A stretch of DNA of 64,000 nucleotides from Halorubrum lacusprofundi ATCC 49239 (GTDB lineage Archaea; Halobacteriota; Halobacteria; Halobacteriales; Haloferacaceae), in assembly GCF_000022205.1 (NCBI RefSeq), contig NC_012030.1, positions 124,001 through 188,000 of the forward strand. Direction: 5' to 3'. The position numbers and the translations under genes were made by a program. The notes under the pieces are model-generated. The model saw only the letters and a program-made list of their open reading frames with translations. It had not been told where the DNA came from and made no database searches. Position 1 is the stretch's first letter, and each line of letters opens with the position of its first letter. Of the stretch, positions 4,380-64,000 are shown one piece after another.

Positions 4380-4535
4380 TTTGCGGTGTGGTGACTACTC
4401 GCCCTTTGTGGGGGCGATAGCGTCCACAAGGACGATGTGGTGGGGAGATCGAGCGCCCGGTCCCCCATGTCTGGTTATGGTCGGAGATATTGGCCGGTTG
4501 GAATTCGAGAGGATCGCGGAAGACAGAATGAACGG

Positions 4536-5955
<1,420 letters not shown>

Positions 5956-6002
5956 TTGAATATCTATGACATCGAGAGACGTAGTGAAAGGAGCGGCAAC
6001 TC

Positions 6003-6206: not shown

Positions 6207-6279
6207 ACGCGCTGTCTCTGGTGGTCCTTCACCAGCAGTCAAGAAGGGCAATGGTGGCTGTGCAGACTGGGTAATCATT

Positions 6280-6330
6280 GGCTCTGTTGAAATCCTCAGT
6301 GAGTGATATGTTCTCGTGGTCGTGCTGAAT
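6280..6330 (+). repeat. IS terminal repeat remnant (left)
   Basis: Begins GGCTCTGTTGAAATCCTC, the terminal repeat of an IS5-type haloarchaeal element. The first ~45 bases also resemble the stretch at 23494-23540. No transposase follows. An inverted copy of the terminal repeat lies at 8608-8625. Confidence 0.7.
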
Positions 6331-6407
6331 ATAGAGGATGTAACTCGCAATCGAAACTCACGGAAAATGATAGAGCGGACGTAGTTAACAATCGCATCAA
6401 CACGGAG

Positions 6408-6554
6408 TTACAGAGCATCAGTATCACCATTTGGGTCTCCAGTAGGAACTTCAAACTCATCGTGGCCGCAATCTGGACACCGCTCTTTGAAGGGACTGAT
6501 CTCACCGTTCTTCAATCGACCCACACGCGCCTTCTAGCAGTTCGAACAATACAT
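6408..6554 (-). pseudogene. Two-knuckle zinc-finger ORF with amber codon
   Basis: Reading from ATG at 6554 gives MYCSNC, a TAG stop (6534-6536), then KARVGRLKNGEISPFKERCP and DCGHDEFEVPTG to a TAA at 6408. The two CxxC knuckles, spaced as in a zinc ribbon, lie on either side of the in-frame stop, so the gene was once a 48-residue zinc-finger protein. Either it is a recent pseudogene by a single substitution, or translation restarts downstream and loses the first knuckle. Confidence 0.6.
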
Positions 6555-6598
6555 GGTATAGGGTATCATCGCGTTCCTGAACCCTTCCGGTCGGTGAG

Positions 6599-6721
6599 TC
6601 AGCTCTCCTTACACTCTTCATCGCAAAACGAATAGAGTCGACGGTCACAATCATCATCTCGCTCCACATGGACTGAATGAGATTCGCCCACATCTAACGG
6701 AGTTCCACAATAGGCACACAC
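6599..6721 (-). CDS. Micro zinc-finger protein (40 aa)
   Basis: A 40-residue protein with CAYCG near the start and FCDEEC near the end, giving a CxxC...CxxxC zinc-binding pattern. The start is GTG at 6721, with AAGGAGG about 14 bases upstream on the coding strand. The ORF ends in KES-stop. It lies between another zinc-finger ORF and the HalOD1 gene, all on the minus strand. Small proteins of this type are common in haloarchaea and are usually regulators or adaptors. Exact role unknown. Confidence 0.6.
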   Translation of the reverse strand: MCAYCGTPLDVGESHSVHVERDDDCDRRLYSFCDEECKES

Positions 6722-6756
6722 TTGGAATCACTCGGCCTCCTTGTCACCCATACTAC

Positions 6757-7059
6757 CTATCCAACGATGACTTCCCCGTACCCCGTGACCGTCACCGGCT
6801 GCTCCTCGTACTCGAACTCGACCTGGATACCCGCCTCCGTCCCCGAAGATAGGAGCGTATCAAGAGCATCCGGATCGATCACCGAGTGGAGGGGTTCCAT
6901 CTCCGTGGGTTCCTCACCGATTACCGCGGCAACCACCCCGACAACCGTTATCGAGAGCGGGCTATCGCTCGTCCAGTCGTACTGGGCGTGGTACGTCTCC
7001 GCGATCGTGTCGTAGCCGAAACGGTCCGTGCTGTCGGTCAGTATCGTACTCGAGGTCAT
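6757..7059 (-). CDS. HalOD1 output-domain protein
   Basis: A 100-residue acidic protein of the HalOD1 family. An N-terminal strand/helix (YDTIAETYHAQYDW) is followed by SITVVGVVAAV, IDPDALDTLL and a final hairpin (VEFEYEEQPVTVTGYGEV). The pattern IDPDAL + hairpin matches IDVDAL + hairpin in the homolog at 1659-1919. It lies 48 bases downstream of the BAT-type regulator on the same strand, an arrangement consistent with a shared transcript and a signalling link. Function inferred from family only. Confidence 0.78.
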   Translation of the reverse strand: MTSSTILTDSTDRFGYDTIAETYHAQYDWTSDSPLSITVVGVVAAVIGEEPTEMEPLHSVIDPDALDTLLSSGTEAGIQVEFEYEEQPVTVTGYGEVIVG

Positions 7060-7106
7060 TACTTCGGGACAGGAGCACCGACGGCCTAAGGAGTCGGGCT
7101 GACTGG

Positions 7107-8456
7107 TCAGCGTACGGCCTTTCCCGACCCCTCGAACAACTGCTCTAAGACGGTATTCTCGGCCAGTCGAAGGTGTCGATTGAAGGTTTGACGGGTGATC
7201 CCCAGCCGCTCGGCGAGTTCGTCACCGATGCTCTTCCGGGGCGTCTCGAAATACCCGCCATAATATGCCGTCTGCAATGACGTGAACTGCCGTTCGGTAA
7301 GCACGTCTTCGACGATGTCGTAGAGGAGCCGCGGCGAGTACTGGAGTTCCTGTGACTCTAATCGGATATCTGGATACACCTTCCGGACGGCCTGTACGGC
7401 CGTCCTCGCTTCCACATCTCCTGGCACTTCAGCCGTGAGGAGAGGGCCTGCGTCACCGTTGGTCTGAAACAAGGATTTCACCTGTCCCCCCAACTCTGCA
7501 AAGACTAGCGACACGGTCGGCGCCTCGACGTGGACCTCAACCCGGCACTTATCGGCGCTCGACTGAAGCAGCCGGGTATCGTCAACACCGTACGCCTGGT
7601 CGAACACGTCGATCAACTCTTTTGCCGAAATGCCCCTCCCGGTGATGTACTGGAGGACCGACCCGTCTTGGAGGCGAACGACTTCGTCAACGTCGATGCG
7701 CATGTCACCGTCAACTACGTCGAGCAGCGGGCTGAATAACTGCTTGGAATAGAGTTCGAGCACCCGGCGTTTATCGCTCGTCAGCTTGTCCTCGCGCTCT
7801 TTCAACCGGGTTGTATCTTCGAATCCCACGACAACATATTCAACTTCTTCATCTTCACTCAATACAGGTGCCGAATTGCTCGACAGCCAGCGTTCGGTTC
7901 CGTTCGGGAGGTCGATCCAGTGTTCGAAGCCGTAATCGGGTTCTTTTGTCTCCAGGACGCGAGTCACGGGGTGCTCGTCCTCGCTGACAGGCGTGCCGTC
8001 GTCGTAATAGATCTTCCACTCCGGTTGGCGGTAGGTTCGAGAGGTAATCTCGTCACGCTCCAGTTCAAGCATTTCTTCAGCCCGTTCGTTCGCGAGGGAG
8101 ATCTGCCCGGACGGCTCGACCACCACGATGCTGATCGGACTGGCTTCAAGGATTTTCTCGATGACCGTGCGCTCGGCGTTGCTCAGCGTCGGCGTCGCGT
8201 GGGTATTGGTCGCGTTTACGGACGATCCTTCATCCGGATGCGATCGCCACCAGACCCGGGCGTTGGCACCTACCTTCTTGGTTTTCAACTCACCACTGCT
8301 CGCCAGCTTCTCTAGACGTTTGTAGACGGTACGTCGAGCCGCGTCGAGCGAGTTTGCCACCTCTGGAGTTGTGAGTGGCTCAGAGGGGTCGTCGCGCCGG
8401 TCGAAGACGGCCAGCGTTTCGGCATAGACATCCCCCAAAGAACCCGATGATGACAT
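7107..8456 (-). CDS. BAT-type transcriptional regulator with PAS domain
   Basis: About 449 residues. An N-terminal winged helix (LTTPEVANSLDAARRTVYKR) is followed by a PAS domain (ISIVVVEPSGQISLANERAE), a middle bacterio-opsin-activator/GAF-like region, and a C-terminal HTH_10 domain (LTERQFTSLQTAYYGGYFET, then LAERLGITRQTFNRHLR). This architecture is typical of haloarchaeal bacterio-opsin activator homologs that sense redox or light-linked signals and act on promoters. Start taken at MSSSGSLGD (8456); a longer reading to 8531 lacks conserved character. It lies within the IS-repeat-bounded block 6280-8625. The target genes are unknown. Confidence 0.85.
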   Translation of the reverse strand: MSSSGSLGDVYAETLAVFDRRDDPSEPLTTPEVANSLDAARRTVYKRLEKLASSGELKTKKVGANARVWWRSHPDEGSSVNATNTHATPTLSNAERTVIEKILEASPISIVVVEPSGQISLANERAEEMLELERDEITSRTYRQPEWKIYYDDGTPVSEDEHPVTRVLETKEPDYGFEHWIDLPNGTERWLSSNSAPVLSEDEEVEYVVVGFEDTTRLKEREDKLTSDKRRVLELYSKQLFSPLLDVVDGDMRIDVDEVVRLQDGSVLQYITGRGISAKELIDVFDQAYGVDDTRLLQSSADKCRVEVHVEAPTVSLVFAELGGQVKSLFQTNGDAGPLLTAEVPGDVEARTAVQAVRKVYPDIRLESQELQYSPRLLYDIVEDVLTERQFTSLQTAYYGGYFETPRKSIGDELAERLGITRQTFNRHLRLAENTVLEQLFEGSGKAVR

Positions 8457-8607
8457 ACACGTCCTAAGGCAAGGCACGCGTATAGCGGTTCCGTCGATGG
8501 CACTACGGAACTGTAGCTTCACCCGGGTCACTCCCTAGAGAGTGTTGTCGATCTTCTTAATGGGAGATACGCGTGTTCTATTCAGCACCCAGCTCTTGTC
8601 AGGCTTG

Positions 8608-8625
8608 GAGGATTTCAACAGAGCC
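8608..8625 (-). repeat. IS terminal repeat remnant (right)
   Basis: GAGGATTTCAACAGAGCC is the exact inverse complement of the 18-base terminal repeat at 6280-6297. No transposase is adjacent. The two ends bound 2346 bases of cargo; no matching target duplication is visible. Confidence 0.7.
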
Positions 8626-8638
8626 TCTGGGTTCTATC

Positions 8639-9109
8639 TCAGTTGACGTCGATGATTTCGACGTCGAACGTCAGCGTTTCGCCGGCGAGACGAGGATTGA
8701 AATCCACCCGGACAACCTCCTCGTCGACGTGGATAACCTCGCCTTGGCTGCCGTTCTGGGCCTCAAGGTAAGACCCCTCTTCAGGCGTCTGGCCGCCGAG
8801 CATCTCTCGGAGCTCCTCGGTTTCGAACTCCTGAATATTCTCGTCGCTAGGCTCGCCGTAGGCCTTCTCCGGCGGGATCGTCAGGGTTTCCGTCTCCCCA
8901 GCCTCTAACCCGATCAGTCCCTCCTCCATCCCCTCGATAATCTGTTCGTCACCAATTTCGACCGTCAGCGGCGCGTACTCTCGGTCGGGCTGGGCCTCGG
9001 CGAGGCCCGTTTCTTCGGCGACGGATTTTCGGGACGTGTCGAACACTGTCTCATCGTCAAGTCGTCCCGTGTACTCAAGCGTCACAGAATCGCCAGTAGC
9101 TATCGTCAT
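8639..9109 (-). CDS. FKBP-type peptidyl-prolyl cis-trans isomerase
   Basis: A 156-residue SlyD-like FKBP that accelerates proline isomerisation during protein folding in the cytoplasm. Visible landmarks are LEYTGRLDDETVFDTS at the N-terminus, IIEGMEEGLIGLEAGE, the flap-containing IPPEKAYGEP and a C-terminal NPRLAGETLTFDVEI. The length fits archaeal long-type FKBPs with an inserted chaperone (IF) domain between the halves of the FKBP fold. The start MTIATGDSV at 9109 matches the family. It is transcribed divergently from the hydrolase at 9224. Looks like a housekeeping gene. Confidence 0.92.
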   Translation of the reverse strand: MTIATGDSVTLEYTGRLDDETVFDTSRKSVAEETGLAEAQPDREYAPLTVEIGDEQIIEGMEEGLIGLEAGETETLTIPPEKAYGEPSDENIQEFETEELREMLGGQTPEEGSYLEAQNGSQGEVIHVDEEVVRVDFNPRLAGETLTFDVEIIDVN

Positions 9110-9223
9110 ACGAATACAAAAAGTGCCACACGGAAAGTCTATTGCATCGAGAGAGGGCCATCGCCGCCGCGTCAGATATTTGATCGCTCGGGTCGATACT
9201 CCGATATCACATCGGATACCTCT

Positions 9224-10153
9224 GTGGACGACCCGGATGCACCGGACACCCCAAGGGGGGAAGCAGACGCGGACCACGCAAACGCCGCCTCCGACAGGCT
9301 CGTCACTCGCCGTCGACTCCTTCTCGGCGTCGCGGGCGGCGTCGGACTCCTCGGGGGCGGCGGGCTCTACGTCACACGATCGCTAAGCGGCGACTTCGGC
9401 GGGTATGACGCGCCGGAGACGCAGCCGATGGTGACGACGCGAGGGCGGCTCGACGCGAACAAGCCGCCGGAGCGATCGGGCTCCTGGGACTTCGACGGAG
9501 CCGACGCGGTGGTCCTGTTCGTCCACGGTCTCGGTGCGGACGCCGAGTCGGGCCGCGATCAGGCGTACACCGCCCGATTGGGGCTCGCAGCGGCGACAGA
9601 CGCCACCACGGAAACCGACGGCCCGCCGGTGATCGGCTACTCGTGGGCGTCGAACGTCGACTGGGGGCCGGCGAAGCAGACCGCGGACGCCAATGTCGCC
9701 CCACTCGCTGACTGGCTGTCGGCGTGGGCGGACGACGACGGGCGACCAGTCCACCTGTTCGCCCACTCGCTCGGCGCCCGCGTGACAGGAGCGACGCTCC
9801 GCGAGCTCGCTGACCGTGAGCGGACAGACGTCCTCGCCTCGGTGTCGCTGTTCGGCGGCGCGATTCCGAACGACAGCGTCGCGGCCGATGGGCGATACGG
9901 GCCGGCTATCGCGGCGGTCGATGCCCCCGTGTTTAACTTCCACAGTCGGACCGATCACGTCCTCGGCTGGGTGTATCGCGTCTCGGATCGGACTCGCGCA
10001 GTCGGTCACGGGGGGCTCGCGGCGTCATCGACTGCGCCGACCGGCTATGCGGATGTCGACGTTACCGACCTGGTCGCGGACCACTACTCGTACTTCCAGC
10101 CGGGAGAAGGGTGTCTACCGCGAGTGGTCGACCGAATTGGATGTTGTCGGTAA
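9224..10153 (+). CDS. Secreted alpha/beta hydrolase (Tat substrate)
   Basis: 309 residues. TRRRLLLGVAGGVGLLGGG near residues 27-45 is a twin-arginine signal followed by a hydrophobic stretch, so export is likely. The catalytic fold shows an oxyanion strand VVLFVHGLG, nucleophile serine in FAHSLGARV, acid in NFHSRTDHVLGW and histidine in ADHYSYF. Resembles serine esterases/lipase-like proteins; substrate unknown. The GTG start at 9224 is the only one that gives the full Tat leader. No operon partner. Confidence 0.82.
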   Translation: MDDPDAPDTPRGEADADHANAASDRLVTRRRLLLGVAGGVGLLGGGGLYVTRSLSGDFGGYDAPETQPMVTTRGRLDANKPPERSGSWDFDGADAVVLFVHGLGADAESGRDQAYTARLGLAAATDATTETDGPPVIGYSWASNVDWGPAKQTADANVAPLADWLSAWADDDGRPVHLFAHSLGARVTGATLRELADRERTDVLASVSLFGGAIPNDSVAADGRYGPAIAAVDAPVFNFHSRTDHVLGWVYRVSDRTRAVGHGGLAASSTAPTGYADVDVTDLVADHYSYFQPGEGCLPRVVDRIGCCR

Positions 10154-10179
10154 CGTGACCGAAGTGGTGTGCAGTCTTT

Positions 10180-10566
10180 TTAACAGAATTCGTCTCGGAG
10201 GCAGTAAGGCTCTCGATGAAATGATTAAAACGAACATAATGATGTGAACGAACTAAACGAACATAATGAGTGAAATGAGTGCGATGAACGCATTCGGAGG
10301 AACGAACTGATCGCTGCTGGATAGACTAGACCTGCGTTCGTTGAATGAAACGATAAAAACGAACATAACGAATACGATGATGAGAACGAGCGTGTTTACT
10401 TCAACGAATGGAACGCACAGTTGGTTTTAATATCGTACTACTCCTCTCGCCGAGTGAAGCAGCCTCACCGAACGCACCGAACGCACCGAACGCACCGAAC
10501 GCACCGAACCAAACGAACGACTCGAGCAAAACGAACAAAACGAATTAACTGAACGGAACGAAAGAT
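10180..10566 (+). repeat. CGAAC iteron region upstream of parA (candidate parS)
   Basis: Many copies of ACGAAC or close variants (often AAACGAAC followed by ATAA), plus five tandem 9-base units CACCGAACG at 10466-10510. The repeats run up to the ATG of the ParA gene. Iterated short repeats next to parA are the classic layout of a plasmid centromere that also serves as an operator. The same motif recurs inside the partner gene at about 11502-11564. Confidence 0.75.
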
Positions 10567-11385
10567 ATGACCGACACCAACACCGCACGAATCACCGTGG
10601 CGAATCAGAAGGGAGGAGCGGGGAAAACGACTGACGTCATTCATGCTGGCGGGGCGCTTGCTGCCCGGGGACACGATGTCCTTTTAGTTGACATCGACTA
10701 TCACGGAGGACTCACCTGCTCGCTCGGCTACGACGATCTGTATTACGACACTGACCGCACAACGCTGTTCGACGTGCTTGATTTCGATCAGATGGAGTCG
10801 GTGAACAACATCATCGTCGAGCACGAAGAGTTTGACATCCTCCCCGCGAGCGAGAAGCTTGCGAACAACAAGAATATCCAGACGCTGCTGGAAGCGCCAA
10901 AGAGCCGAGAGCGACTGGAGATGACTCTCGACGCACTTGACAGAGACTATGACTACATCATCGTCGACACGCCGCCTTCTCTAAACGTCCTCACCGATAA
11001 CGCTCTCGTCGCGACCGGCAACGTCGTTATCCCCGTTATTCCCGAGAAACTCAACGCTAACAGCCTCCAGATTTTCGCGAAGCAGCTGACCTCTCTCGAA
11101 CCGGCGTACGGTGACATCAACCGTCTCGCGATTATGTGTAACCGTGTTGAGCAGAACAGCGAGCACCGAGACACCATCGAGGAGATCAAATCGGCGTACT
11201 CGCTCCCCGTCTTCGAGATTCCGAAGCGCACCGATCTCTCACAGTCGATCGGGGAGGGCGTGTCCGTCTTCGGTTTCGGCAAGGAGAACAAGCGTGTCGA
11301 AGATGCTCGCAAGTTGTTTAACGAGATCGCCGACCTGTTCGACGAGACGTTTGAGAAGACAGCGCCGGAAGAGGTGGAAGCATGA
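10567..11385 (+). CDS. ParA-family partition ATPase
   Basis: 272 residues. The deviant Walker A motif KGGAGKTT spans residues 15-22, with a Walker A' strand (VLLVDID) and Walker B (YIIVDTPPS). ParA dimers bind DNA non-specifically and move plasmid copies by interacting with a centromere-bound partner. The iteron region ends immediately upstream and the following gene overlaps by four bases (ATGA), so the two form an operon that is probably autoregulated through the iterons. The residues after the Walker A' Asp are YHGG rather than the usual PQGN, a mild divergence. Confidence 0.93.
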   Translation: MTDTNTARITVANQKGGAGKTTDVIHAGGALAARGHDVLLVDIDYHGGLTCSLGYDDLYYDTDRTTLFDVLDFDQMESVNNIIVEHEEFDILPASEKLANNKNIQTLLEAPKSRERLEMTLDALDRDYDYIIVDTPPSLNVLTDNALVATGNVVIPVIPEKLNANSLQIFAKQLTSLEPAYGDINRLAIMCNRVEQNSEHRDTIEEIKSAYSLPVFEIPKRTDLSQSIGEGVSVFGFGKENKRVEDARKLFNEIADLFDETFEKTAPEEVEA

Positions 11386-46673: not shown

Positions 46674-47945
46674 CTAGTGGGTGCTATTCTGATGTTCTTG
46701 CACGATTCCGTCGATATATGGCTCAACGATTGCACGGAGACCATTGAGTTCTTGGATAGTACGACGAATTGAGTCCGCTGGATGTTCCGTATCGAACGGA
46801 ACTGATTTTGCGAGATACGCGTAGCTACCATCAACGACTTCCCAGTCGGCGTCTTCTAATGCTTCCCAGTCTTCCTGACCTAGTTTCTCGCTGAACTCTT
46901 CTCTTATTTGCTGATTTCCTGAATTTTCGATATCGAGGCGGAGCCGAATTTCTGGATGATCGCGGTTGAGATGGACATGGGGTTCATATTCGATTCGGAC
47001 ATTACCCGCCACGTTCTCCCAGTTTATTTTGGCGAAGTTGATGTACGTCTTCGGTCGATTGTTTACTGTCCAGTCTTTTTTGGGGCCGTCTAGTGCATCG
47101 AGAAAAGCCGTCTGAAGGTGATTGAAAATCTTGGCTTTATCGTTTTTGTAGGCCTTAACGAGTCGATCAATCGTATCGGAGTATTCGGTGTACAGTTTCG
47201 TCTCTTCTGAGATGGTGGTGAAATCGTCCATATTGAGTGTCTGTCTTATTGTGTCGAGGTAATCAGCGAGCTGGGCGTGACTTTTCGATGGATATTGGCC
47301 ATGACTTGTCGTCAGTACATCTTCGAGATAGGGGACGATGTGCTCCCATGATACATCGACGAATGTCTCAGATGTCGATGCACCTGCACTTCGGGGGGCG
47401 AGGTAAACGTACTCACTCGTCCCATCGTGTCGGCTCACGTTGAGGTCGCCCAGCTTTGAGGCCTGGGCATATCGTTTTGTTTGAGTTCTCGTTTCAGCTG
47501 CAGCGACTTTCAACTCGATAACGACGTACCAGGCATCTTTGCTCCACAAGAAGATATCAAAAGGCCCCTTGCCGGTAGGAACCTGCGATTGAACCTTGAC
47601 CTCTCCGAGCTTGGACTGTTGAAGTGGAAGCACAGTCTCCTCGTGTTCAGCAAGTGCTTGTAGGAATACTCTAAGAACATCTGTTCCGAATCCATGAGGG
47701 TTTTCGGGGTCAAGAAAATAGACAAGCAGGTTCTCCCAGTATCGTTCGCGTTTGGCTTCCCCAAGAATGTCTAATGTGGTTGCTGGTGGTCGGTTAACAT
47801 CAGCCAGTCGCTCCTCAATTTCTTGCAGGTGGGCCTCTATTGTGGTCTCAGGCACAGTGTTGTCGAATACTGTAACATACAAAGTACTGGGGCTGTAGGC
47901 AGAGAACGACTGAATCGCTTTGCCATCTATTTCTGAGGGGTTCAC
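46674..47945 (-). CDS. PD-(D/E)XK nuclease family protein
   Basis: 423 residues. The nuclease core is visible at GPFDIFLWSKDAWYVVIELK, giving the D...ExK motif, preceded by RYWENLLVYFLDPENPHGFG, a pattern of PD-(D/E)XK superfamily proteins (PDDEXK_9-type). A C-terminal region (residues ~255-415) is probably substrate-specific. Its start overlaps the stop of the small gene at 47942, so they are coupled. Often found as restriction-like or defence nucleases on plasmids. Target unknown. Confidence 0.78.
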   Translation of the reverse strand: MNPSEIDGKAIQSFSAYSPSTLYVTVFDNTVPETTIEAHLQEIEERLADVNRPPATTLDILGEAKRERYWENLLVYFLDPENPHGFGTDVLRVFLQALAEHEETVLPLQQSKLGEVKVQSQVPTGKGPFDIFLWSKDAWYVVIELKVAAAETRTQTKRYAQASKLGDLNVSRHDGTSEYVYLAPRSAGASTSETFVDVSWEHIVPYLEDVLTTSHGQYPSKSHAQLADYLDTIRQTLNMDDFTTISEETKLYTEYSDTIDRLVKAYKNDKAKIFNHLQTAFLDALDGPKKDWTVNNRPKTYINFAKINWENVAGNVRIEYEPHVHLNRDHPEIRLRLDIENSGNQQIREEFSEKLGQEDWEALEDADWEVVDGSYAYLAKSVPFDTEHPADSIRRTIQELNGLRAIVEPYIDGIVQEHQNSTH

Positions 47946-54414: not shown

Positions 54415-55790
54415 TTAGAACGTCTGCTTGCTGAAGGTGTGTCTAAAACCAAACAAGCAGACGGTGAGATCCACGAGGACCAGCTTCTTAACTTTCTCGT
54501 CAACCGCCTTGACGAGGAAGTTTCGCTCTCGTTAGCCAATAACGCTGAAATCACTGCTGAAGACATCTATGAGGTCCTCGTCGGCGCTTGCGCCGACGGG
54601 ACCTCTGTCTCTACGCTCTGTGCGTCGAGCCAGAACTCACCCGCTGGGAACACGGTCCTCTACCATCTTCGGACGAAGTTCGAGCCGGAACGGCTCGAAC
54701 GAGTCGCTAACACGCTCCTGCGAAAGGATCTCGATGAATTGCTCCCCGAACAGGTGGAGGTCTGCGCAGACCTCCACCTGCGGCCCTACTACGGTGACGA
54801 AGACGACACAGACGGCCTCTATCACTCGGTAGCGAAGCGTGGAACCACTGCGTTCCACGCCTATGCCACACTCTACGCGCGTGTGAAGAACAAACGCTAC
54901 ACGCTGGCGGTACGCCGTCTCAAAGACGGCGATACCGCAAGTAGTGTCCTCGCTGAGTTCTTCGGTGTCCTCGACGGCCTTGACGCCGGGGTCAAGGCCG
55001 TCTACCTTGATCGCGGATTCTACGACAGTAAGTGTCTCACGCTGCTTCAGGCGCACAATTACGCGTACGTGATCCCGATCATCCGGTGGGGTGAGGCGAT
55101 TCAGCAAGAGCTCTCGGAAGGATGGAGTCGCGTCATTCAGCATGATCTGACGGGGAAACTCGACGGTCACAGCTGGACCGTCGATTTTCCCGTCTACATC
55201 GACTGTACGTACCTAAATGGGAAGTATGACGAGAACGGTGTGGCGCGTCACGGCTACGCCGCTGACGCGCCGTTCATCGACTCACCACGGGACGCTCGAT
55301 ACCACTACTCGAAACGCTTCGGTATCGAGTCAAGCTATCGCTTGTTTGAGCAAGCGATAGCGACAACGACAACACGAGATCCAACGGTACGGCTGCTGTA
55401 CGTGGTGGTGAGTCTCCTCTTACAGAACGTCTGGCGGTACCTTCACTACGAGTATGTGGCGACGCCCCGCCGAGGCGGGCGTCGCCTCTGGTGGTGGCCG
55501 TACAAGGAGTTCGTCAATATGATTCGACGAGCTGCGTGGACGGCCCTCGCGGTGCGTCGGGCCGTCCCCGCGAATCGGCCACCTGACGACCGATTCCACC
55601 GCTAACCACCGACCGAGCAAGCCAGCGGAGTGAGTGGCGACGCTGTCGCGTCGGCGGCTGACCGCCGCCGACAGCGACAGCTCTCCGTCGATCCGTCCGT
55701 AATTCTCTCGTCGAGACCGTCAGTACAACCGCTTCGACACAGAACTCAGGCCGCAGAAACAGCTAGCCGAGGATGCTTTGTGAGGTACTG
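54392..55790 (+). mobile_element. ISH3-type insertion sequence, copy B
   Basis: 1399 bases, same ends (CAGTAC...GTACTG) as copy A in inverse orientation. Flanks AGATT and ATACT do not match, so the target duplication is lost, implying a deletion or rearrangement at one end. It cuts off the CoiA-like gene on its left and a gene remnant on its right. Confidence 0.92.
54439..55605 (+). CDS. ISH3-family transposase
   Basis: 388 residues, identical in sequence to the product at 23773-24939, with Asp111, Asp191 and Glu297 intact. Start is a GTG-type codon at 54439. Looks functional. Confidence 0.95.
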   Translation: MSKTKQADGEIHEDQLLNFLVNRLDEEVSLSLANNAEITAEDIYEVLVGACADGTSVSTLCASSQNSPAGNTVLYHLRTKFEPERLERVANTLLRKDLDELLPEQVEVCADLHLRPYYGDEDDTDGLYHSVAKRGTTAFHAYATLYARVKNKRYTLAVRRLKDGDTASSVLAEFFGVLDGLDAGVKAVYLDRGFYDSKCLTLLQAHNYAYVIPIIRWGEAIQQELSEGWSRVIQHDLTGKLDGHSWTVDFPVYIDCTYLNGKYDENGVARHGYAADAPFIDSPRDARYHYSKRFGIESSYRLFEQAIATTTTRDPTVRLLYVVVSLLLQNVWRYLHYEYVATPRRGGRRLWWWPYKEFVNMIRRAAWTALAVRRAVPANRPPDDRFHR

Positions 55791-56088: not shown

Positions 56089-56430
56089 CTACGGACGCGT
56101 CCACTCGGGAAGTTCACTGATTGGAATCCACTCTCTATCCTCGGTCTGGTATTCCCACCAGTCCCATCCGCTGTAGCCATACGGGTCATCACGAGCGTCC
56201 ACACCTCTGTGTCGCCGGTCAGCTTTTCGGGCGGCACCTGACGGTGTCCGCGTCGTGTAGTCAGAATTGTCTGGACCAGTATCTCCAGAGATGTTAATCC
56301 GCTCACCTTGTACATGGGCGGTCACAACGTCGCCCTCGTACTCGCCTCTCTTGTAGACGTGGCGGAGCGTCGTTCCGTTATCCCGTTGCCCGAGCTTCGG
56401 ATTCAGCCACCGGGGCATTTTTTCTCCCAT
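56089..56430 (-). CDS. RAMA-domain protein 2
   Basis: 113 residues from MGEKMPRWL at 56430. A RAMA-like fold is visible: HVYKRGEYEGDVVTAHVQGE, then TRTPSGAARKADRRHRG and GYSGWDWWEYQ. RAMA (restriction enzyme and adenine methylase associated) domains are linked to restriction and methylase systems, probably reading DNA modification. It begins two bases after the stop of RAMA protein 1, so the two form an operon and are paralogs. Lies downstream of the helicase gene. Confidence 0.72.
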   Translation of the reverse strand: MGEKMPRWLNPKLGQRDNGTTLRHVYKRGEYEGDVVTAHVQGERINISGDTGPDNSDYTTRTPSGAARKADRRHRGVDARDDPYGYSGWDWWEYQTEDREWIPISELPEWTRP

Positions 56431-56432
56431 TG

Positions 56433-56894
56433 TTATCCCTCCGCGAGTTCTGTGATCGGTTCCCAGTCGCCATCCTCGGTTTCGTACTCCCACCACGTCC
56501 AGCCGTTATATCCTTCGCCGCGAGCGTCATCACCGCGAAGCTGTTTGTCGGCTACCCGAGCAGCTCCCGTGGGACTCCGCGTTTCTTGGGTATCGTCTTC
56601 AACGGAGAGCCGACCCCCTTGTATGGTAGCTTCAACCGTTTCACCGCCGTAGTCGCCACGCTGGTAGCGATGTCGAACTATGGTTCCATCCGGCAACTCA
56701 CTTAGTTCAGAGTCCTCTGCTTCCGCTCCTTGACTATTATACGTCGTCGCACGGTTGTTACGGTCTTCGAGTGCCGCATCCTCATCTACGTGTACGAGAA
56801 CGCGAGCAAGCACATCGTTCCATGATTCGTCTCTGTTCCCGAAGTCACCGAGTTCTTGGTACAGATCATCAGCCAGCTTGATACTTCGCGCCAT
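56433..56894 (-). CDS. RAMA-domain protein 1 with RHH-like N-terminus
   Basis: 153 residues. N-terminal IKLADDLYQELGDFGNRDES, WNDVLARVLVHVDED is a small ribbon-helix-helix/VapB-like region. The C-terminal RAMA part is RHRYQRGDYGGETVEATIQG, TRSPTGAARVADKQLRGD, YNGWTWWEYE. RHH plus RAMA suggests a DNA-binding protein that may sense modified bases. Same strand as the helicase/methyltransferase pair 218 bases upstream. Confidence 0.75.
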   Translation of the reverse strand: MARSIKLADDLYQELGDFGNRDESWNDVLARVLVHVDEDAALEDRNNRATTYNSQGAEAEDSELSELPDGTIVRHRYQRGDYGGETVEATIQGGRLSVEDDTQETRSPTGAARVADKQLRGDDARGEGYNGWTWWEYETEDGDWEPITELAEG

Positions 56895-57112
56895 ATCACA
56901 CTATCTTTCTTTTGGACAGATAAACTTATTCTTTTCTTAGTAACTAAGTAAAGTCTAATCTCTTTGAGTTAGTTCAGGTGATGGACTATAGTAAGCCCGA
57001 CCAGAGGTTTCATCTCGTCTGTGAGTAACACGCAGATATAGAAATCGTTCTCAGCAACAAGTTAGTGAATTCGACCTATAGAACATCAATCAGCAATTCG
57101 GGGAAAAACCCG

Positions 57113-60100
57113 TTAGCTGAATGTCACTTGGCTCATAAGTTTCGGCCGATCATCTTCTTCATTCCCTTCCTCTGGTGAGACAACCATCCAGCAGATCAAC
57201 TTGACCTCATCCTCTTGGATTGGTGGGAGTGGGTCCGGGGCCTCGAACGGCTGGAGACCAAGATCGCTGACCTTCTCGACGAGCTGTCGAGATTTCTCCA
57301 CAGGGCCGAGTGATTCATTTTCGTAGATATCACGAAGTTCTCGTTCATACCGTCTACCCCATGGGGCTTCGACGGCCTCAACAGTCTCTTCCATCGCTTG
57401 CTGAGTCATCTCGTCAGGCCAGTTGTCTCGAAGGTGTTGGCCTACCTCACGGAATAGTTTCCTAATATCCGGCTGTACGTTGAGTGGGTCTGTTTGCTCT
57501 TGCCACTGACGGTAGATGTCTTCCTGAGCCACCTCCCAGGCATCATAAATTTGCTCACGCATTTCCTCGGGTAGAGCCCGATCAGTTTCCTTCGCACATT
57601 CGATTCGCTTGAGACAGGAGAGCGTGTCCTGCACAATCTCGTCTTCTTCCTCGTCTATTTCCTCGTCTATTTCATCAGGAAGGAATCGCATGAATACCTC
57701 GTCTCCGATACGGGCGCAGAAGAAGTATCCCGGCTTTTTACCTTTGAATCCTGAACCCGCCGCCCATGGGAGTGATGTGATCTGGTCTTCACGTGTCTCC
57801 AGTCCTTTCCGGAGTTCCTGACGATACTCTTCACCAGAGTAGGCGGCCGCCGTTCCGCCACCTTTCTCGTAGAACTCCGTATCTTCCTCTTGGATTGAAC
57901 CGATGTCTTCAACCTTCTCAGCAAAGTTCTGATTCAGGGTATCCATGTCTGGCATGACACCATCGCTGACTCCGATCGAACGCGAGGCTTGGGTAAGTTT
58001 TTCTCGGACTCGATGTTCAAGTTCCAGTAGATCATCAAGTCGGTCCTCGGGGAAGAAGGTAATCGGATATATTTTCGAATGTGGCGAGTTCACACGGTCA
58101 ATACGTCCGTTGCGCTGGACAACACGCATTGGGTTCCACGGAAGATCGTAGTTGATGACTGTGCGGGCTTCCTGAAGATTGACTCCCTGAGCGAGCACGT
58201 CCGTTGAAATTAGGATATCAAAGTCATCAGTTGCATCTGGCGGTGCATCGCCGGAGTTCGGCGCAAAGCCGTGAACAGCCCGTTCTCGCGTAACACGGTA
58301 CTTTGATCCATCACCGCTGACCGCCGCGATTCGACCCTCGTAACAGGACAGTTCATCATCTTCAGAGATGATCTCTTCCAGATACTCATAGATCCAGTCG
58401 ACCGTATCTTCGTAATATGAGAACAGCAGTACTTTCCTATTTTGACGGAAAGATGCTTCAGTAGATTTGTCAGAAACTTCACCTGCTTCTGCGTCTTCAC
58501 GCGCCGCCTCAACGACGTCGTGTAAGGTATCACGCAATGCATGGAGCTTCTCATCATCTTCGCGGTCGACTTCACTTGCGCCATCACGCCATCGCTCAAG
58601 AAGTTCAACATCGTTTTCTAAATCTGCTTGCAGCTGTCCAGGATCGGCGTCAGCACTACTAAGCGGAATATGCCCGTTAGAAACATCACCCAACGTTTCG
58701 TCGAAAGCTTCGTCGTTATCCATCTCCACCCACTCATCGATCGCATCCGGATCTGGGAAGTAGCCTTCTTCCATAAGCCGAAGGGCGGCGCGGTTTTGCC
58801 TCACCATTCGACTGAGGGTGTTGGCGAATGCGTGGCTTGATGACTCGAATCGCTTGAGGAGACCGGTCCTAAGCAGGCCCACAAGAGAGGCTTCAGACGC
58901 GTCTTCCTCGCCCTCCAGGTAGAAAGATGGCCGATACCGTGCCAACGTAAGCTCACCCTCGTCACGGTCGCCAGCAGCCAATCCTCGCGCTACGTCCTCA
59001 AAATAGGCATCACCAAACGTCTCCGAGAATGTATAGTCGACACGCTTTGGGTTGGGATCTGGGAAGTTGACCCGAACTGATCCTCCTTCACCATCGGGCA
59101 TCGTCGCGTTCTCGTAGTGATTTTTGATGAACCGCCGAGTCCGTCGGACGGTTGTTTCGTCGAGCACATCGAACAACATATCCGGGCTCAGATCAGCCGG
59201 ATCCTCTGACTGCGCTGTCTTGAATCGTTCACGAAGCGAGCGAATACCCTCGTTGGCGAACGCTGCGTCGTTCTTGATGAAATAGTTGAGCAGGTAGTAC
59301 AAATCCCATAGCGAGTTGTTCACGGGTGTCGCTGTGAGCATCACCACGTCTTTGGGTGGATCCCCACGGAGGAGCGTGCGGAGAGCGTGAGACTGTTGTG
59401 TACCAGGATTCCGGAACGCATGGGCCTCGTCGATTACGACCAGTTGGTACTCGTCGACTTCAAGATTTAGGACGTTCAGGTCACCGCCGAGTTGAGTATC
59501 TCGCCGAAGCTCTGCATATGACACCGTCTCGTACTGGACTCCCCATTCAGACTCTTTCTGTGTCCACATCCCATCACGAAGATAGGCTGGTGCCACCACA
59601 AGCGCACGCTGACGGTTCTGCTGAACGTACTGACGCAGGAGCTCGCCCGCAATGTATGTCTTGCCAAGGCCGACCTCGTCGCCAACAATTACACCGCCGT
59701 GTTTATCGAGGAAACGGTTTGCTCGCCTCACAGCGTCTTGCTGGAAGTTAGTGAGGTTGATGCCACCGTCTTCCTCCTTCTCTTCTTCCAGTTCGTCGCC
59801 GTATCGCTCATAGAGGACGCGTAGATAGATCAGGTACGGATCATAGGGCTCGAATCGTTCCTCGTACAGCGCGGCCAGATCAAATTGCTCGCTCTCAGCC
59901 CACAAATCGTCGAACCAATCCTGTACTTGACCTGTGACGTGAGGATTGTACGCACCGATGTTCAACTCCAGATTCGAATTCAGCCCTGCACCTGTGAAGT
60001 TCGATGAGCCTGCGATGACCCCTTGGCGGTCAGAGAAGAGATACGCCTTCCCGTGAATGAACTGATCTTCGTGTCGACGGACTTCAACACGATCGCTACG

Positions 60101-60487
60101 GAAGAAGTCGACCAGCTCCTGAAGATTCTCGTCAACCTCACGGGAGAACCCGAGTAAATCCCGATCGCGCTTGAGGTTGAAGTCGAATGTCTGGAGTGAT
60201 TCATTGATTCGTTTTTGATTGTACTCCTCGTCCCGAGGATCTCCCGGTTGCCGCCAGCGTTCCGTACCCTCGTTGCTCGGTTCTGCACCGACGAGAAGAC
60301 GGACCTGATCAACGTGATCAAGCCCATCGGAGATTGAAAAGTAGCCTCTTGGATTGAAGTACCCCGTAACGATGTCAAGATCAGGGTCGGCGGCGAGCGT
60401 ATCGTCAAGATCCGCGAGGTAGGCATTGATTGCCGCCGATAGTGTGTTGCCATTACGGTTGTCGACGAACTGCGGTTGCTCAGTCAT
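57113..60487 (-). CDS. PLD-like + SNF2 helicase
   Basis: 1124 residues. The N-terminus (1-230) is phospholipase-D-like with DLDIVTGYFNPRGYFSISDG and an HxK-type motif FIHGKAYLFSDR plus GSSNFT. The helicase has Walker A (GDEVGLGKTY), DEAH box (VVIDEAHAFRNP), TATPVNNSLWDLYYLL and a C-terminal domain with DVLAQGVNLQEA and QRNGRIDR. PLD domains can be nucleases. Partner of the methyltransferase directly upstream. Such a SNF2 helicase and large adenine MTase pair occurs in class 1 DISARM and type 3/5 BREX. Start at 60487 inside a 32-base direct repeat. Confidence 0.88.
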   Translation of the reverse strand: MTEQPQFVDNRNGNTLSAAINAYLADLDDTLAADPDLDIVTGYFNPRGYFSISDGLDHVDQVRLLVGAEPSNEGTERWRQPGDPRDEEYNQKRINESLQTFDFNLKRDRDLLGFSREVDENLQELVDFFRSDRVEVRRHEDQFIHGKAYLFSDRQGVIAGSSNFTGAGLNSNLELNIGAYNPHVTGQVQDWFDDLWAESEQFDLAALYEERFEPYDPYLIYLRVLYERYGDELEEEKEEDGGINLTNFQQDAVRRANRFLDKHGGVIVGDEVGLGKTYIAGELLRQYVQQNRQRALVVAPAYLRDGMWTQKESEWGVQYETVSYAELRRDTQLGGDLNVLNLEVDEYQLVVIDEAHAFRNPGTQQSHALRTLLRGDPPKDVVMLTATPVNNSLWDLYYLLNYFIKNDAAFANEGIRSLRERFKTAQSEDPADLSPDMLFDVLDETTVRRTRRFIKNHYENATMPDGEGGSVRVNFPDPNPKRVDYTFSETFGDAYFEDVARGLAAGDRDEGELTLARYRPSFYLEGEEDASEASLVGLLRTGLLKRFESSSHAFANTLSRMVRQNRAALRLMEEGYFPDPDAIDEWVEMDNDEAFDETLGDVSNGHIPLSSADADPGQLQADLENDVELLERWRDGASEVDREDDEKLHALRDTLHDVVEAAREDAEAGEVSDKSTEASFRQNRKVLLFSYYEDTVDWIYEYLEEIISEDDELSCYEGRIAAVSGDGSKYRVTRERAVHGFAPNSGDAPPDATDDFDILISTDVLAQGVNLQEARTVINYDLPWNPMRVVQRNGRIDRVNSPHSKIYPITFFPEDRLDDLLELEHRVREKLTQASRSIGVSDGVMPDMDTLNQNFAEKVEDIGSIQEEDTEFYEKGGGTAAAYSGEEYRQELRKGLETREDQITSLPWAAGSGFKGKKPGYFFCARIGDEVFMRFLPDEIDEEIDEEEDEIVQDTLSCLKRIECAKETDRALPEEMREQIYDAWEVAQEDIYRQWQEQTDPLNVQPDIRKLFREVGQHLRDNWPDEMTQQAMEETVEAVEAPWGRRYERELRDIYENESLGPVEKSRQLVEKVSDLGLQPFEAPDPLPPIQEDEVKLICWMVVSPEEGNEEDDRPKLMSQVTFS

Positions 60488-60552
60488 CCAAGCGTCACCT
60501 GCGCCCGGTCACTGGTATCGGGTTGTCGACGAACTGCGGTTGCTCAGTCATC
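60457..60552. repeat. 32-bp direct repeat at helicase start
   Basis: Identical 32-base units at 60457-60488 and 60521-60552 contain the first ten codons of the helicase. The upstream copy places an ATG at the methyltransferase stop (ATGACTGA) but runs into a stop after 17 codons. The downstream copy is the working start. Confidence 0.85.
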
Positions 60553-63500
60553 GTTGCGTGTCCCCCCCTGTCTATCTTCTTCACGATTCGCGTGGTCAAG
60601 ATCAAGCTTGTCGGCCCAGCTCACGTAGTAATCAAGGACCCGATCTAAACGTTCTTGATGATCCCAGCCAACGTGGAACGTCTCGAAGATGACCTCGACG
60701 TGTTCGCGGGAGAGGCCGTAGAGATGAGCAACAACGGCATCAAGTTCATAGATCTTGTCCTGTTGTACCTCCTCGTCAAGCGAACCAACTTCCACATCGT
60801 TCTCATCCGCCCAGTCCGCATAACGTTCATCGACAGCCGCGAGACGACCAGAGAGTTCAACGACACGTTCCCGAAGTGGATCATCACGCCCAGGTCGAGG
60901 AATCGGGAAAGTCTTGATAACCTGAAAAGTAAGATGAGTCTCAACGAAACGCCGAGCATACCAGTCTGCTAAGATTGTGTTTAGTACACCCAGAAGGTAT
61001 GCTTCATCTTCTGGTTCTCCTTCTGGCCAGAGGAAGTATATGAGAGTGTTATTCAAGAAAACTTGTGGTGGAATCAAAGCTGGACGTAAAGTCCGTTGAT
61101 CGTCGTTCCTGGCAACTTTTCGTACCGCTACTCGTGGGAAAAGGCATGGGAGTGTGCTTTTATCCATTACCCATTTCTCTGGCATTTCTGACATCGGAGA
61201 GTTAGAGTAGGGATATGCATTCTCGCGTTTCTGTTGCAGGTGGCTCTTTCCCGCTTCGGAATCTACCCACGCGTAGCGTTTACCTGTATCATTCACCCAA
61301 AGTTCCTGATTCGGGGGGTTAATCGAAGCTCCCTTAAATACAGGCCAGAAGCTGTCGGGAACCTCTTCTGGGTCTGTTTCTACATCCTCTCCAGATGGTT
61401 TCTTATGTGCAATATCTTCTCGATAGGGAACTCCTCGCCAGGATTCTTGTTCCGAAGATAACCCTGGTGCAGTAGTGAGCTGTTTAAATGCTGGTCCAGA
61501 GTACTTTGCTGGAGGTAACAGAGGGAACTTGGCGCTCCCGGCCCAAGCCTTTGCTTCCTCTCTGGGGAACCAGGTTGGACCTTCTTTCAACCCTTCATTA
61601 TAGCTTTCTGGGTCGGTATAGGGACCACGTATCGGAACTTCACCATCAGTAATCTGTTCTTTTTGAAGAGTAAACAGAGCTACCGTATATCGTGGTTCAA
61701 CGTTGTCAAAAACCCACTCACGTTCGTTTTTCAAGAAAGTCAGGTCTGTGACATTCCCTTTTTCAAGAATCTCATATCTCAATGTCTCCGCACCAGGGCT
61801 GATAAACGCGGCTCGGGGGAGAACAACACCAAGGTAACCAGAATCACTGATAAGTCTCCAAAAGCGCCAACTGAAGCCCTGATATAGATCTGGATCCCCA
61901 CGACCCATATCAGGATACGGACCGTTGGTTAAAATCTGGCTTCGTTGCCGTTGTGCTCGTCGTTCTTCCTCCAGTTGTAGCGCCAGATCTGGTCTTTTAG
62001 TCTCAAGCTCTGTTATCTTCTCTTCACGTTCGTTTTTGTCCAGTCCACTCAGACCTGGGTAGTGTCTTCGCCAAAACTCGTCACGTTCGATCTTTGCTTG
62101 TTCCCAAGGCGGATTTCCAACGATCACATCGAATCCGCTGTCATCACCATCGAAGACTTCTGGAAATGATGCGGGGAAATGGAGAGGATTCGTAGACTCC
62201 AGAACGTCCTTTGCTCGTTCATAGCTCTCGTGATCTCTCACGTCGATGCCAGTGTCAGACACTGGGTCGGTATTTATCTCGTCATCTATACGGGACGCAG
62301 CTAAGATATCAAATCTCGCTCGAACTTGGCCAAGGTTCTTTTCTATTTCTACACGAGTTTTGCGTGCTTCTTGTACCTGTTCAGCACTGGCATCGGCGAA
62401 GCTCCCCAACTGTTCAATATCATCTCGAATATCGTTCATTATGCTCTGACCGCCAGCAAACATCCCTAATGATGACTGCTCGATATCAAGTATATCCGTC
62501 ACTTCGTCGAGCGTTCCGATTCCAGCCAGCGAGTCGCCAGTCACGAGATTGTAATCAAGGAACGTTAACGGGAGACCGGGAACAAACGTATGTACCCAAA
62601 TCGATAGCCGTGCAAGTTCGGTCGAAAGTGGGTTTATGTCAACTCCGTAGATACAGCGACGGGCAACTTGACGACGCAGGAGCTGTCCACGTTCGACCGG
62701 TGGTGCGTACTCTTCGTCTTCGAAGGCATCTAATGCCGCGTCTTCGAGGTTGTCGAGTTCGTCCTCGACGGGCGACAGCGGTTTCTCGGTCAGATACGCA
62801 TAGAGTCGAGATTCGATGCGGTCGACAGCCCCGACAAGGAAGTGACCAGATCCCATCGCAATATCCGACACCCGAAGGTCGAAGAACGCATCCGCAGCGG
62901 CGTGTTCGCCCTCTTCCTCACGGAGCCAGTCGATACGTTCGAGATGGTCATCCAGTGCGGGTTCCAGTGAGTGATCAAGAAGATGCTCAACGAACCGAGA
63001 TTTCGTATAGTACGTCCCCGTCGCTTTTCGCTCTCCGGACTGACCATGAAGATAGACCTCTCCTTCTTCAACAACTATGTCCTCGTGATCATCACCGAGT
63101 GTCTGTTGACCATCTATATCGACTGGGACATAGTGTCCTTCGTTGTCAATTGTAAGCGGCTGTTCGGCCAGCGACAACTCAGACTCCAGCAGACCCTCGT
63201 ATACGACCCCGAAATCTCGGACACCGATATTCCTGAAGTCGACAGGCCCCTGATAGCCGTCCCCTGTTTCGTCGATCAGGAGGTTCGCCAATACAGGTCC
63301 GAAATCGGCATTATCAAGTCGAATATCCGCCAGCTTCGCACCGGCTTGAGAGATATCCGGATCTTCAGAGAGTAAGGTCCCCTCGTAAGCGGGAAGTCCT
63401 AACTCGTCGTGTCCGCGGTGGACGGCCCGCGAAAGATGCATCACGTCGTCCCAGTGGTCGTAGAATCCGGCGTCGAAGTCACCGTCGTCCTCAATGAAGT

Positions 63501-64000
63501 CGTGGAGGTCGTGCGCCTTCTGTTTGAGAGAATTCCGGTCGTACCGCTCGTTACGCCGTCGCGGGAGGAACTCTTCGTCTTCAGCGTAAGCGATGAACAG
63601 CAACCGGTAGAGGAGCACCAACGTCATCTCATAGGTCTCGTCCAACTGTTCCTTCGTCGGATCGTCGATATCACGTGCACGGGCGATCGCTTCCGCCAGA
63701 TCTGGCACAACATCGTCGTAAATCCGTTCACGGAGTCGTTCTCCAAGAGCCGCTGCGTAGTCTTTCGATCGCTCCATAATGTCATGGAGCGTCCCGTCTT
63801 CTCGGAGCGCGTTGGCGGAGAATAGCAGCCAGAGATACGCCGCCTTTTCGTCTGCAAGGAGACTTGTGTTAACCTCAACGTAGGTATCTGTTCGACCGCG
63901 TGAGCCAAACCCTGCATCGGGATTCGTTGTGTACAGTCGTAGCGTATCACCACTACTTCCGATGACGTATTCGAGATTTCGTTTGTCGGCTTCGTTGAGC
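60544..64000 (-). CDS. Large adenine-specific DNA methyltransferase (partial, 5' end outside window)
   Basis: At least 1151 residues; the frame is open to the right edge and continues (LNEADKRNLEYVIGSSGDTL at the edge), so the start lies outside the window. SAM motif I is DIAMGSGHFLVGAV, catalytic motif IV is VIVGNPPWEQ, followed by a long target-recognition region. This is the COG1002/Eco57I-type architecture, as in type IIG enzymes, DISARM DrmMI and BREX PglX. The stop overlaps an ATG of the helicase-start repeat. It would methylate adenine in host DNA to mark self. Confidence 0.9.
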   Translation of the reverse strand, partial: LNEADKRNLEYVIGSSGDTLRLYTTNPDAGFGSRGRTDTYVEVNTSLLADEKAAYLWLLFSANALREDGTLHDIMERSKDYAAALGERLRERIYDDVVPDLAEAIARARDIDDPTKEQLDETYEMTLVLLYRLLFIAYAEDEEFLPRRRNERYDRNSLKQKAHDLHDFIEDDGDFDAGFYDHWDDVMHLSRAVHRGHDELGLPAYEGTLLSEDPDISQAGAKLADIRLDNADFGPVLANLLIDETGDGYQGPVDFRNIGVRDFGVVYEGLLESELSLAEQPLTIDNEGHYVPVDIDGQQTLGDDHEDIVVEEGEVYLHGQSGERKATGTYYTKSRFVEHLLDHSLEPALDDHLERIDWLREEEGEHAAADAFFDLRVSDIAMGSGHFLVGAVDRIESRLYAYLTEKPLSPVEDELDNLEDAALDAFEDEEYAPPVERGQLLRRQVARRCIYGVDINPLSTELARLSIWVHTFVPGLPLTFLDYNLVTGDSLAGIGTLDEVTDILDIEQSSLGMFAGGQSIMNDIRDDIEQLGSFADASAEQVQEARKTRVEIEKNLGQVRARFDILAASRIDDEINTDPVSDTGIDVRDHESYERAKDVLESTNPLHFPASFPEVFDGDDSGFDVIVGNPPWEQAKIERDEFWRRHYPGLSGLDKNEREEKITELETKRPDLALQLEEERRAQRQRSQILTNGPYPDMGRGDPDLYQGFSWRFWRLISDSGYLGVVLPRAAFISPGAETLRYEILEKGNVTDLTFLKNEREWVFDNVEPRYTVALFTLQKEQITDGEVPIRGPYTDPESYNEGLKEGPTWFPREEAKAWAGSAKFPLLPPAKYSGPAFKQLTTAPGLSSEQESWRGVPYREDIAHKKPSGEDVETDPEEVPDSFWPVFKGASINPPNQELWVNDTGKRYAWVDSEAGKSHLQQKRENAYPYSNSPMSEMPEKWVMDKSTLPCLFPRVAVRKVARNDDQRTLRPALIPPQVFLNNTLIYFLWPEGEPEDEAYLLGVLNTILADWYARRFVETHLTFQVIKTFPIPRPGRDDPLRERVVELSGRLAAVDERYADWADENDVEVGSLDEEVQQDKIYELDAVVAHLYGLSREHVEVIFETFHVGWDHQERLDRVLDYYVSWADKLDLDHANREEDRQGGTRNDD

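What the first reader, a model, noticed from the sequence alone, without database searches (positions are those of the whole stretch)
56089..64000. Methyltransferase, PLD-SNF2 helicase and two RAMA proteins in one direction
A large adenine methyltransferase and a helicase with a built-in PLD domain are followed by two tandem RAMA-domain proteins, one with an RHH-like N-terminus. MTase plus SNF2 helicase is the accessory pair of class 1 DISARM and type 3/5 BREX, but here PLD is fused to the helicase and RAMA readers are attached. This could be a self-contained restriction variant in which RAMA proteins sense modification state.
Basis: partly seen in the sequence, partly recalled or inferred. 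Interest (0 to 1): 0.7.

Follow-up and report, generated by a model that had tools for sequence, protein, structure and literature searches.

The report
Two-gene restriction module beside RAMA proteins
In a salt-loving archaeon (Halorubrum) a large DNA-adenine methyltransferase and a nuclease-helicase fusion form a conserved two-gene restriction-type defence pair that recurs in other archaea and in bacteria, while the two small RAMA (predicted DNA-mark reader) proteins beside it are a separate module that is rarely next to this pair but repeatedly sits beside other methyltransferase defence systems.

Summary
The window (Halorubrum) carries an Eco57I-type adenine methyltransferase (cut by the window edge; full length 1375 aa), a PLD-SNF2 helicase (1124 aa), and two tandem RAMA proteins, the first with an RHH/VapB-like N-terminus. 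The RAMA fold is supported by structure: Z 8.6 to CcrM's RAMA domain and 8.2 to MPND, next hit 3.7. Methyltransferase plus PLD-helicase is a self-contained two-gene unit: 17 of 18 relatives carry methyltransferase sequence upstream, three actinobacterial plasmids have the same pair, and no DISARM, BREX or DUF499 genes lie nearby. Catalytic motifs are invariant, and only the methyltransferase's presumed target-recognition region is hypervariable, as expected of restriction-modification. The RAMA genes are not part of that unit: they flank it in 2 of 19 genomes, have their own conserved upstream block, and their closest copy lies in a genome without the pair. Yet haloarchaeal RAMA loci lie within 8 kb of an Eco57I methyltransferase 8 times in 16 (0.19 expected), beside at least four different methyltransferase systems. 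They look like an exchangeable accessory module. Whether they read adenine methylation is untested; published MPND data show no 6mA preference.

The parts
60544..64000 (-). Eco57I/type IIG-like N6-adenine DNA methyltransferase, 1375 aa; the gene continues to position 64671, outside the window. Motif I DIAMGSGHF at aa 603, motif IV NPPW at aa 853, hypervariable presumed target-recognition region aa ~900-1250
57113..60487 (-). PLD-SNF2 helicase, 1124 aa: single PLD nuclease domain (HxK at aa 145-147, then GSSN) fused to a SNF2 translocase (GDEVGLGKT at aa 269, DEAH at 353, RNGRIDR at 792)
56433..56894 (-). RHH/VapB-like N-terminus plus RAMA domain, 153 aa
56089..56430 (-). second RAMA protein without RHH, 113 aa (ATG at 56430; the ORF is open from GTG 56496)
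56895..56985 (-). upstream region of RHH-RAMA: ACTAAGTACAGGATAAGTTTTA-like block, conserved in five RHH-RAMA loci with otherwise different upstream genes; contains CTTAGT-N-ACTAAG about 41-43 nt before the ATG. Own promoter/operator inferred
   Evidence: the palindrome alone is not significant against shuffles
60457..60551 (-). 31-bp direct repeat, copies 64 bp apart, duplicating the helicase start codon region at the MTase-helicase junction (in relatives the two genes overlap)
54439..55605 (+). DDE transposase-like gene on the left flank (two more transposase-like genes lie just beyond the right window edge, L006 2220-3392 and 3512-4447)

Best explanation
The MTase and the PLD-SNF2 helicase are the two subunits of an ATP-dependent restriction-modification system. 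The MTase recognises a site through its variable C-terminal region and methylates adenine to mark self. On unmethylated DNA the helicase subunit is recruited, translocates by its SNF2 motor and cuts with its PLD nuclease. The tandem RHH-RAMA and RAMA genes are a separately transcribed, exchangeable accessory module found beside several kinds of large adenine MTase. Most likely they are DNA-binding control proteins: the RHH part is autoregulatory and the RAMA part binds, and may read, DNA. Shown here: gene anatomy, intact catalytic motifs, conservation of the pair, hypervariability confined to the MTase C-terminal region, RAMA fold, non-conservation of RAMA with this pair, and enrichment of RAMA near MTases. 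Inferred: restriction activity, physical complex, target-recognition role of the variable region, separate transcription, and every function of the RAMA proteins.
For: Pair: MTase sequence adjacent to the helicase in 17 of 18 relatives, usually with short gene overlaps; in one of these only a C-terminal remnant, and in the 18th the contig starts at the helicase. Full-length pair at 40-43% identity in Euzebya, Rhodococcus and Mycobacterium plasmids, none with a recognised RAMA gene. HxK...GSSN and SNF2 motifs kept in 14 of 14 helicases; MTase motif I (AMGSGHF) and NPPW kept in all 12 full-length MTases compared. In six close relatives MTase identity is mostly 0.74-0.94 up to aa 800 and falls to 0.32-0.6 at aa ~900-1250, while the helicase stays at 0.69-0.97 throughout. 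Published precedents: HKD-SNF2 plus N6-MTase read as RM-like (PMC12839542); SauUSI, an ATP-dependent PLD-helicase nuclease (PMC12707154). RAMA: fold; near Eco57I MTases in 8 of 16 loci, 0.19 expected, P about 1e-12; conserved own upstream block; closest RHH-RAMA (89%) is in G232, which lacks the pair.
Against: No activity, interaction or methylome data. The MTase N-terminal 330 aa folded poorly (pLDDT 59) with no significant structural match, so a nuclease there, which would make the MTase itself a type IIG enzyme, is not excluded. The enrichment of RAMA near MTases could reflect shared defence islands rather than function; three RAMA genomes have no Eco57I MTase hit at all. The RHH assignment is weak (VAPB_antitox 0.016; low pLDDT).
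Confidence: 0.62

Rival explanations
1. RAMA proteins are functional subunits or modification sensors of this restriction system: they read the methylation state of incoming or self DNA and license the PLD-helicase.
For: Same direction and immediate neighbourhood in the window. RHH-RAMA directly downstream of another MTase-helicase pair in G060 and G194, and RAMA beside other large MTases. RAMA fused to DUF3780 in some Type-2 BR systems, which also have an HKD-SNF2 helicase (PMC12839542).
Against: Absent next to 17 of 18 relatives of the pair; not seen at the actinobacterial pairs; own conserved upstream block; MPND RAMA does not discriminate 6mA (PMC9963953); present in genomes without any Eco57I MTase hit.
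Confidence: 0.2
2. A remnant or variant of a known multi-gene system (DISARM, BREX type 3/5, or Type-2 BREX-related DUF499/Hma) that has lost its other genes.
For: The helicase scores against DrmD (147 bits NCBIfam) and HKD+Snf2 (187 bits PADLOC); the MTase scores against DrmMI (237 bits PADLOC). The HKD-SNF2 plus N6-MTase logic is that of Type-2 BR (PMC12839542).
Against: NCBIfam curated cut-offs far from met (DrmD 147 of 610; PglX 24 of 500). DUF499 absent from 13 of 19 pair-bearing genomes and never near the pair. PglZ and MZB hits lie elsewhere in the genomes. The pair alone is conserved over archaea and actinobacteria, not a decayed scrap.
Confidence: 0.12
3. The MTase is itself a type IIG restriction-methyltransferase and the PLD-helicase an auxiliary; the RAMA genes are incidental island neighbours.
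For: PADLOC names the best model REase_MTase_IIG (734 bits). Conserved ~330-aa N-terminal region of unknown fold.
Against: No nuclease domain recognised in the N-terminus by Pfam (aa 225 onwards scanned) or by structure. An intact PLD nuclease is encoded next door.
Confidence: 0.1

Closest known systems
Type-2 DUF499-centred BREX-related (BR/Hma-like) systems (PMC12839542)
   Same: N6-MTase plus SWI2/SNF2 helicase with an N-terminal HKD/PLD nuclease; RAMA sometimes fused to their DUF3780
   Different: No DUF499 ATPase at the locus here; the MTase matches Eco57I in Pfam and no other family above cut-off; RAMA is on separate small proteins
SauUSI, PLD-helicase-SRA modification-dependent nuclease (PMC12707154)
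   Same: PLD nuclease fused to an ATP-driven helicase
   Different: SauUSI has its own SRA reader and cuts modified DNA; here target choice would come from a partner MTase and unmodified DNA would be cut
DISARM class 1 (DrmMI plus DrmD) and BREX (PglX, BrxHII)
   Same: Large adenine MTase and SNF2 helicase of related superfamilies
   Different: Curated cut-offs not met; no drmA/drmB or pglZ at the locus; PLD fused to the helicase, not a separate DrmC
CcrM C-terminal domain and MPND RAMA domain (6pbd, 7ydw)
   Same: RAMA fold, Z 8.6 and 8.2
   Different: Here the domain stands alone or behind an RHH-like N-terminus, not on an MTase or a peptidase
C (controller) proteins of type II RM systems (PMC12707154)
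   Same: Small separately encoded DNA-binding protein next to RM genes with its own upstream operator-like sequence
   Different: C proteins are HTH; here RHH-like plus RAMA, and no regulation has been tested

Membership tests
DISARM | DrmD/DrmC equivalogs at curated cut-off | tested here: not met
   DrmD 147.5 bits of 610 required; DrmC 18.9 of 133
DISARM | drmA/drmB (MZB/DUF1998) at the locus | tested here: not met
   MZB hits only elsewhere in the genomes; no such gene among the ORFs of 32 kb to the right
BREX | PglZ at the locus | tested here: not met
   PglZ in 6 of 19 pair-bearing genomes, never near the pair; own copy at C1:425 kb
BREX | PglX at curated cut-off | tested here: not met
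   The MTase of relative L040 scores 24 bits of 500
Type-2 BREX-related (DUF499) systems | DUF499 ATPase in the operon | tested here: not met
   Absent from 13 of 19 genomes and never near the pair
Type-2 BREX-related (DUF499) systems | N-terminal HKD nuclease fused to SNF2 helicase | tested here: met
   PLDc_2 at 121-196, SNF2 at 262-452, Helicase_C at 681-799; HxK invariant
Type-2 BREX-related (DUF499) systems | DUF3780 protein in the locus | not tested
   No DUF3780 seen among the neighbours scanned with Pfam, but no dedicated search was made
ATP-dependent restriction-modification (type I/III-like logic) | Intact adenine MTase, motor and nuclease with a variable target-recognition region | tested here: met
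   Motifs; variability profile
ATP-dependent restriction-modification (type I/III-like logic) | Methylation-dependent restriction in cells | not testable with these tools
   needs experiment
RAMA domain (PF18755) | Profile match above gathering score | tested here: not met
   20.8 bits of 35.2; 5 of 19 family members match at E <= 0.01
RAMA domain (PF18755) | RAMA fold | tested here: met
   Z 8.6 to CcrM and 8.2 to MPND, next 3.7, on a model with pLDDT 71-88 over most of the domain. A shared fold is weaker than a profile match above cut-off, so 'RAMA' is a fold-level call
RHH/VapB antitoxin-like | RHH fold in the N-terminus | tested here: inconclusive
   VAPB_antitox matched by 6 of 19 members (best 0.001), DUF7557 by 4 (best 4e-6); pLDDT about 45-63 there

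The most novel reading that the evidence does not exclude
RHH-RAMA/RAMA genes are a portable modification-state sensor or controller that plugs into unrelated adenine-MTase defence systems in haloarchaea (IIG-like MTase plus PLD-SNF2, DrmMI-like MTase plus BrxHII-like helicase, DrmD/DrmMI/DruE-like), setting their expression or activity according to the methylation state of DNA.
Probability: 0.22. Interest if true: 0.65.

Novelty: new variant of a known kind. Interest (0 to 1): 0.42.

Why it matters
It isolates a minimal two-gene PLD-SNF2 restriction unit shared by archaea and bacteria that fails the tests for DISARM, BREX and DUF499/Hma. It also offers small RAMA proteins, linked by position to adenine methyltransferases, as simple test cases for the open question of whether RAMA domains read N6-methyladenine at all.

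Tried and rejected
DISARM/BREX extension to the right: transposases, a Fic protein, arsenic and cobalamin-type genes and no defence core in 32 kb. RAMA relatives in viral contigs: none found. The RAMA profile over 391 haloarchaeal genomes gave the same 15 genomes as the single sequence. Foldseek alone gave no significant match for the RAMA model; only the second-look aligner did. Foldseek on the MTase N-terminal model: nothing usable. The inverted repeat upstream of RHH-RAMA is no better than shuffles in any single genome, so the operator rests on its near-constant position only. The sigma-70 promoter scan is not applicable to archaea. A NucS-like nuclease upstream of the pair in 5 relatives was considered as a third subunit and rejected: two different subfamilies, both orientations, not in most relatives.

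Full report
What is there. The window is G000:C3:124001-188000 of a 3.69-Mb three-contig genome; the genus is inferred to be Halorubrum, since the same-genus genome G259 carries the contig that is Halorubrum alkaliphilum. Four minus-strand genes match the description. The MTase is cut by the window edge and is complete at 60544..64671, 1375 aa. Pfam sees Eco57I in it; PADLOC's best model is REase_MTase_IIG with 734 bits. The helicase (57113..60487) carries PLDc_2, SNF2 and Helicase_C domains. Two small genes follow after 218 bp: 56433..56894 and 56089..56430.

RAMA identity. By sequence the RAMA call is weak (20.8 bits against a cut-off of 35.2; 5 of 19 family members). The AF2 model of the first protein, aligned by VIA-align, gives Z 8.6 to residues 269-352 of CcrM (6pbd) and 8.2 to MPND bound to DNA (7ydw); the next row is 3.7. 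These are the RAMA structures discussed in PMC9963953, so the fold call is good although Foldseek alone was silent. The second small protein aligns with the first at 48% identity. The N-terminus of the first is RHH/VapB-like only by weak profile matches.

The pair is the unit. A search of 391 genomes of the class found 18 close relatives of the helicase (58-88% identity). In 17 of them MTase sequence lies directly upstream, in 15 as a full-length or near full-length gene; in G259 it is cut by the contig end, G052 keeps only a C-terminal remnant, and in G345 the contig begins at the helicase. The same two genes occur side by side in three actinobacterial plasmids at 40-43% identity, with 4-nt overlaps in Euzebya and Mycobacterium. 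PLD HxK...GSSN, Walker A, the DEAH-type box and the SNF2 RxGRIDR motif are kept in all 14 helicases compared; MTase motif I and NPPW are kept in the 12 full-length MTases. Pairwise identity among six close relatives drops to 0.32-0.6 in MTase residues ~900-1250, while the helicase shows no such region. That pattern, one variable specificity region in an otherwise conserved MTase and nuclease-motor, is what restriction-modification evolution predicts. In the window the start of the helicase gene is duplicated as a 31-bp direct repeat, copies 64 bp apart, so the two genes no longer overlap.

It is not DISARM, BREX or DUF499/Hma by the features tested. NCBIfam equivalog cut-offs are missed by a wide margin. 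DUF499 and PglZ are absent from most of the genomes, and DUF499, PglZ and MZB hits never lie at the pair. The nearest published logic is the Type-2 BREX-related system, HKD-SNF2 helicase plus N6-MTase plus DUF499 plus DUF3780 (PMC12839542). The nearest tested enzyme with a PLD-helicase fusion is SauUSI (PMC12707154).

RAMA genes are a separate module. Near this pair they occur only in the window and, 2 kb away beyond two opposite-strand genes, in G118. RHH-RAMA occurs in G232, G289 and G280 without the pair, and the closest RHH-RAMA to the window's (89%) is that of G232. Starting roughly 45 bp before the RHH-RAMA start codon a block is conserved in five genomes although the DNA further upstream differs, which suggests its own promoter; an imperfect palindrome at near-constant position may be an RHH operator, but single-genome statistics do not support it. 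Elsewhere RHH-RAMA follows a DrmMI-like MTase plus BrxHII-like helicase (G060, which matches the Halalkalicoccus jeotgali B3 plasmids, and G194), and RAMA proteins lie by other MTases (G280, G232), by a DrmD/DrmMI/DruE-like cluster (G024) and near a IIG MTase (G289). Of 16 RAMA loci, 8 are within 8 kb of an Eco57I domain, against 0.19 expected at random positions. Defence-island clustering inflates this and the loci are not all independent, but about four different MTase systems are involved.

What the RAMA proteins do is open. The literature calls RAMA a candidate 6mA reader, but in the MPND study 6mA did not change binding, and CcrM's domain contacts only the DNA backbone (PMC9963953). Together with the RHH-like part and the inferred separate promoter, a control protein analogous to C proteins (PMC12707154) is the most economical reading; a sensor subunit remains possible.

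Also seen: 5 of 18 relatives have a NucS-like nuclease upstream, two with a weakly RAMA-like C-terminus; DUF6884 plus a PADLOC candidate (PDC-M57A/B) travel with the pair or with RAMA in several loci. The picture is of a conserved two-gene core with interchangeable accessory genes.

Noticed in passing
L133 (G000:C3:312000-331900), positions 6362-9871: A 99.3% identical 3.5-kb copy of the MTase 5' part (aa 1-1017 plus upstream DNA) sits truncated next to a transposase-like gene and near Cas3-like and other apparent CRISPR-Cas genes: a recent partial duplication without helicase or the C-terminal part of the MTase.
   Followed up: partly
L134 (G000:C3:18000-32000), 3110-10913: A second MTase (1432 aa) plus BrxHII/DrmD-like helicase (988 aa) pair in the same genome, followed directly by a TATA-binding-protein homologue (PF00352, 6.5e-42).
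   Followed up: partly
L095 10183-10746; L098 1424-2050; L134 10368-10913: TBP homologues recur beside or near haloarchaeal MTase/helicase defence loci, reminiscent of TOTE/TALON systems that carry TBP (PMC12458937).
   Followed up: partly
L041 4986-6224; L088 10554-11704; L089 10566-11701; also L042 and L044: DUF6884 plus a ~237-aa partner (PADLOC candidate PDC-M57A/B) recurs next to RHH-RAMA tandems and next to the MTase/PLD-helicase pair.
   Followed up: partly
L040 1452-2522; L046 3114-4202: NucS-type nuclease-like protein with a weak RAMA-like C-terminus (PADLOC candidate PDC-S11) upstream of, and on the opposite strand to, the MTase/PLD-helicase pair.
   Followed up: partly
L128 12387-13235 (Euzebya pacifica plasmid): The MTase/PLD-helicase pair is followed, overlapping by 4 nt, by an annotated phosphorothioated-DNA-binding restriction endonuclease: another modification-reading neighbour of the pair.
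   Followed up: no
window 60457-60551: 31-bp direct repeat, copies 64 bp apart, at the MTase-helicase junction; the first copy reads a short peptide ending in TGA shortly before the helicase start.
   Followed up: partly
window 46674-47945 (-): PDDEXK_4 nuclease family protein (423 aa), a possible further defence gene.
   Followed up: no
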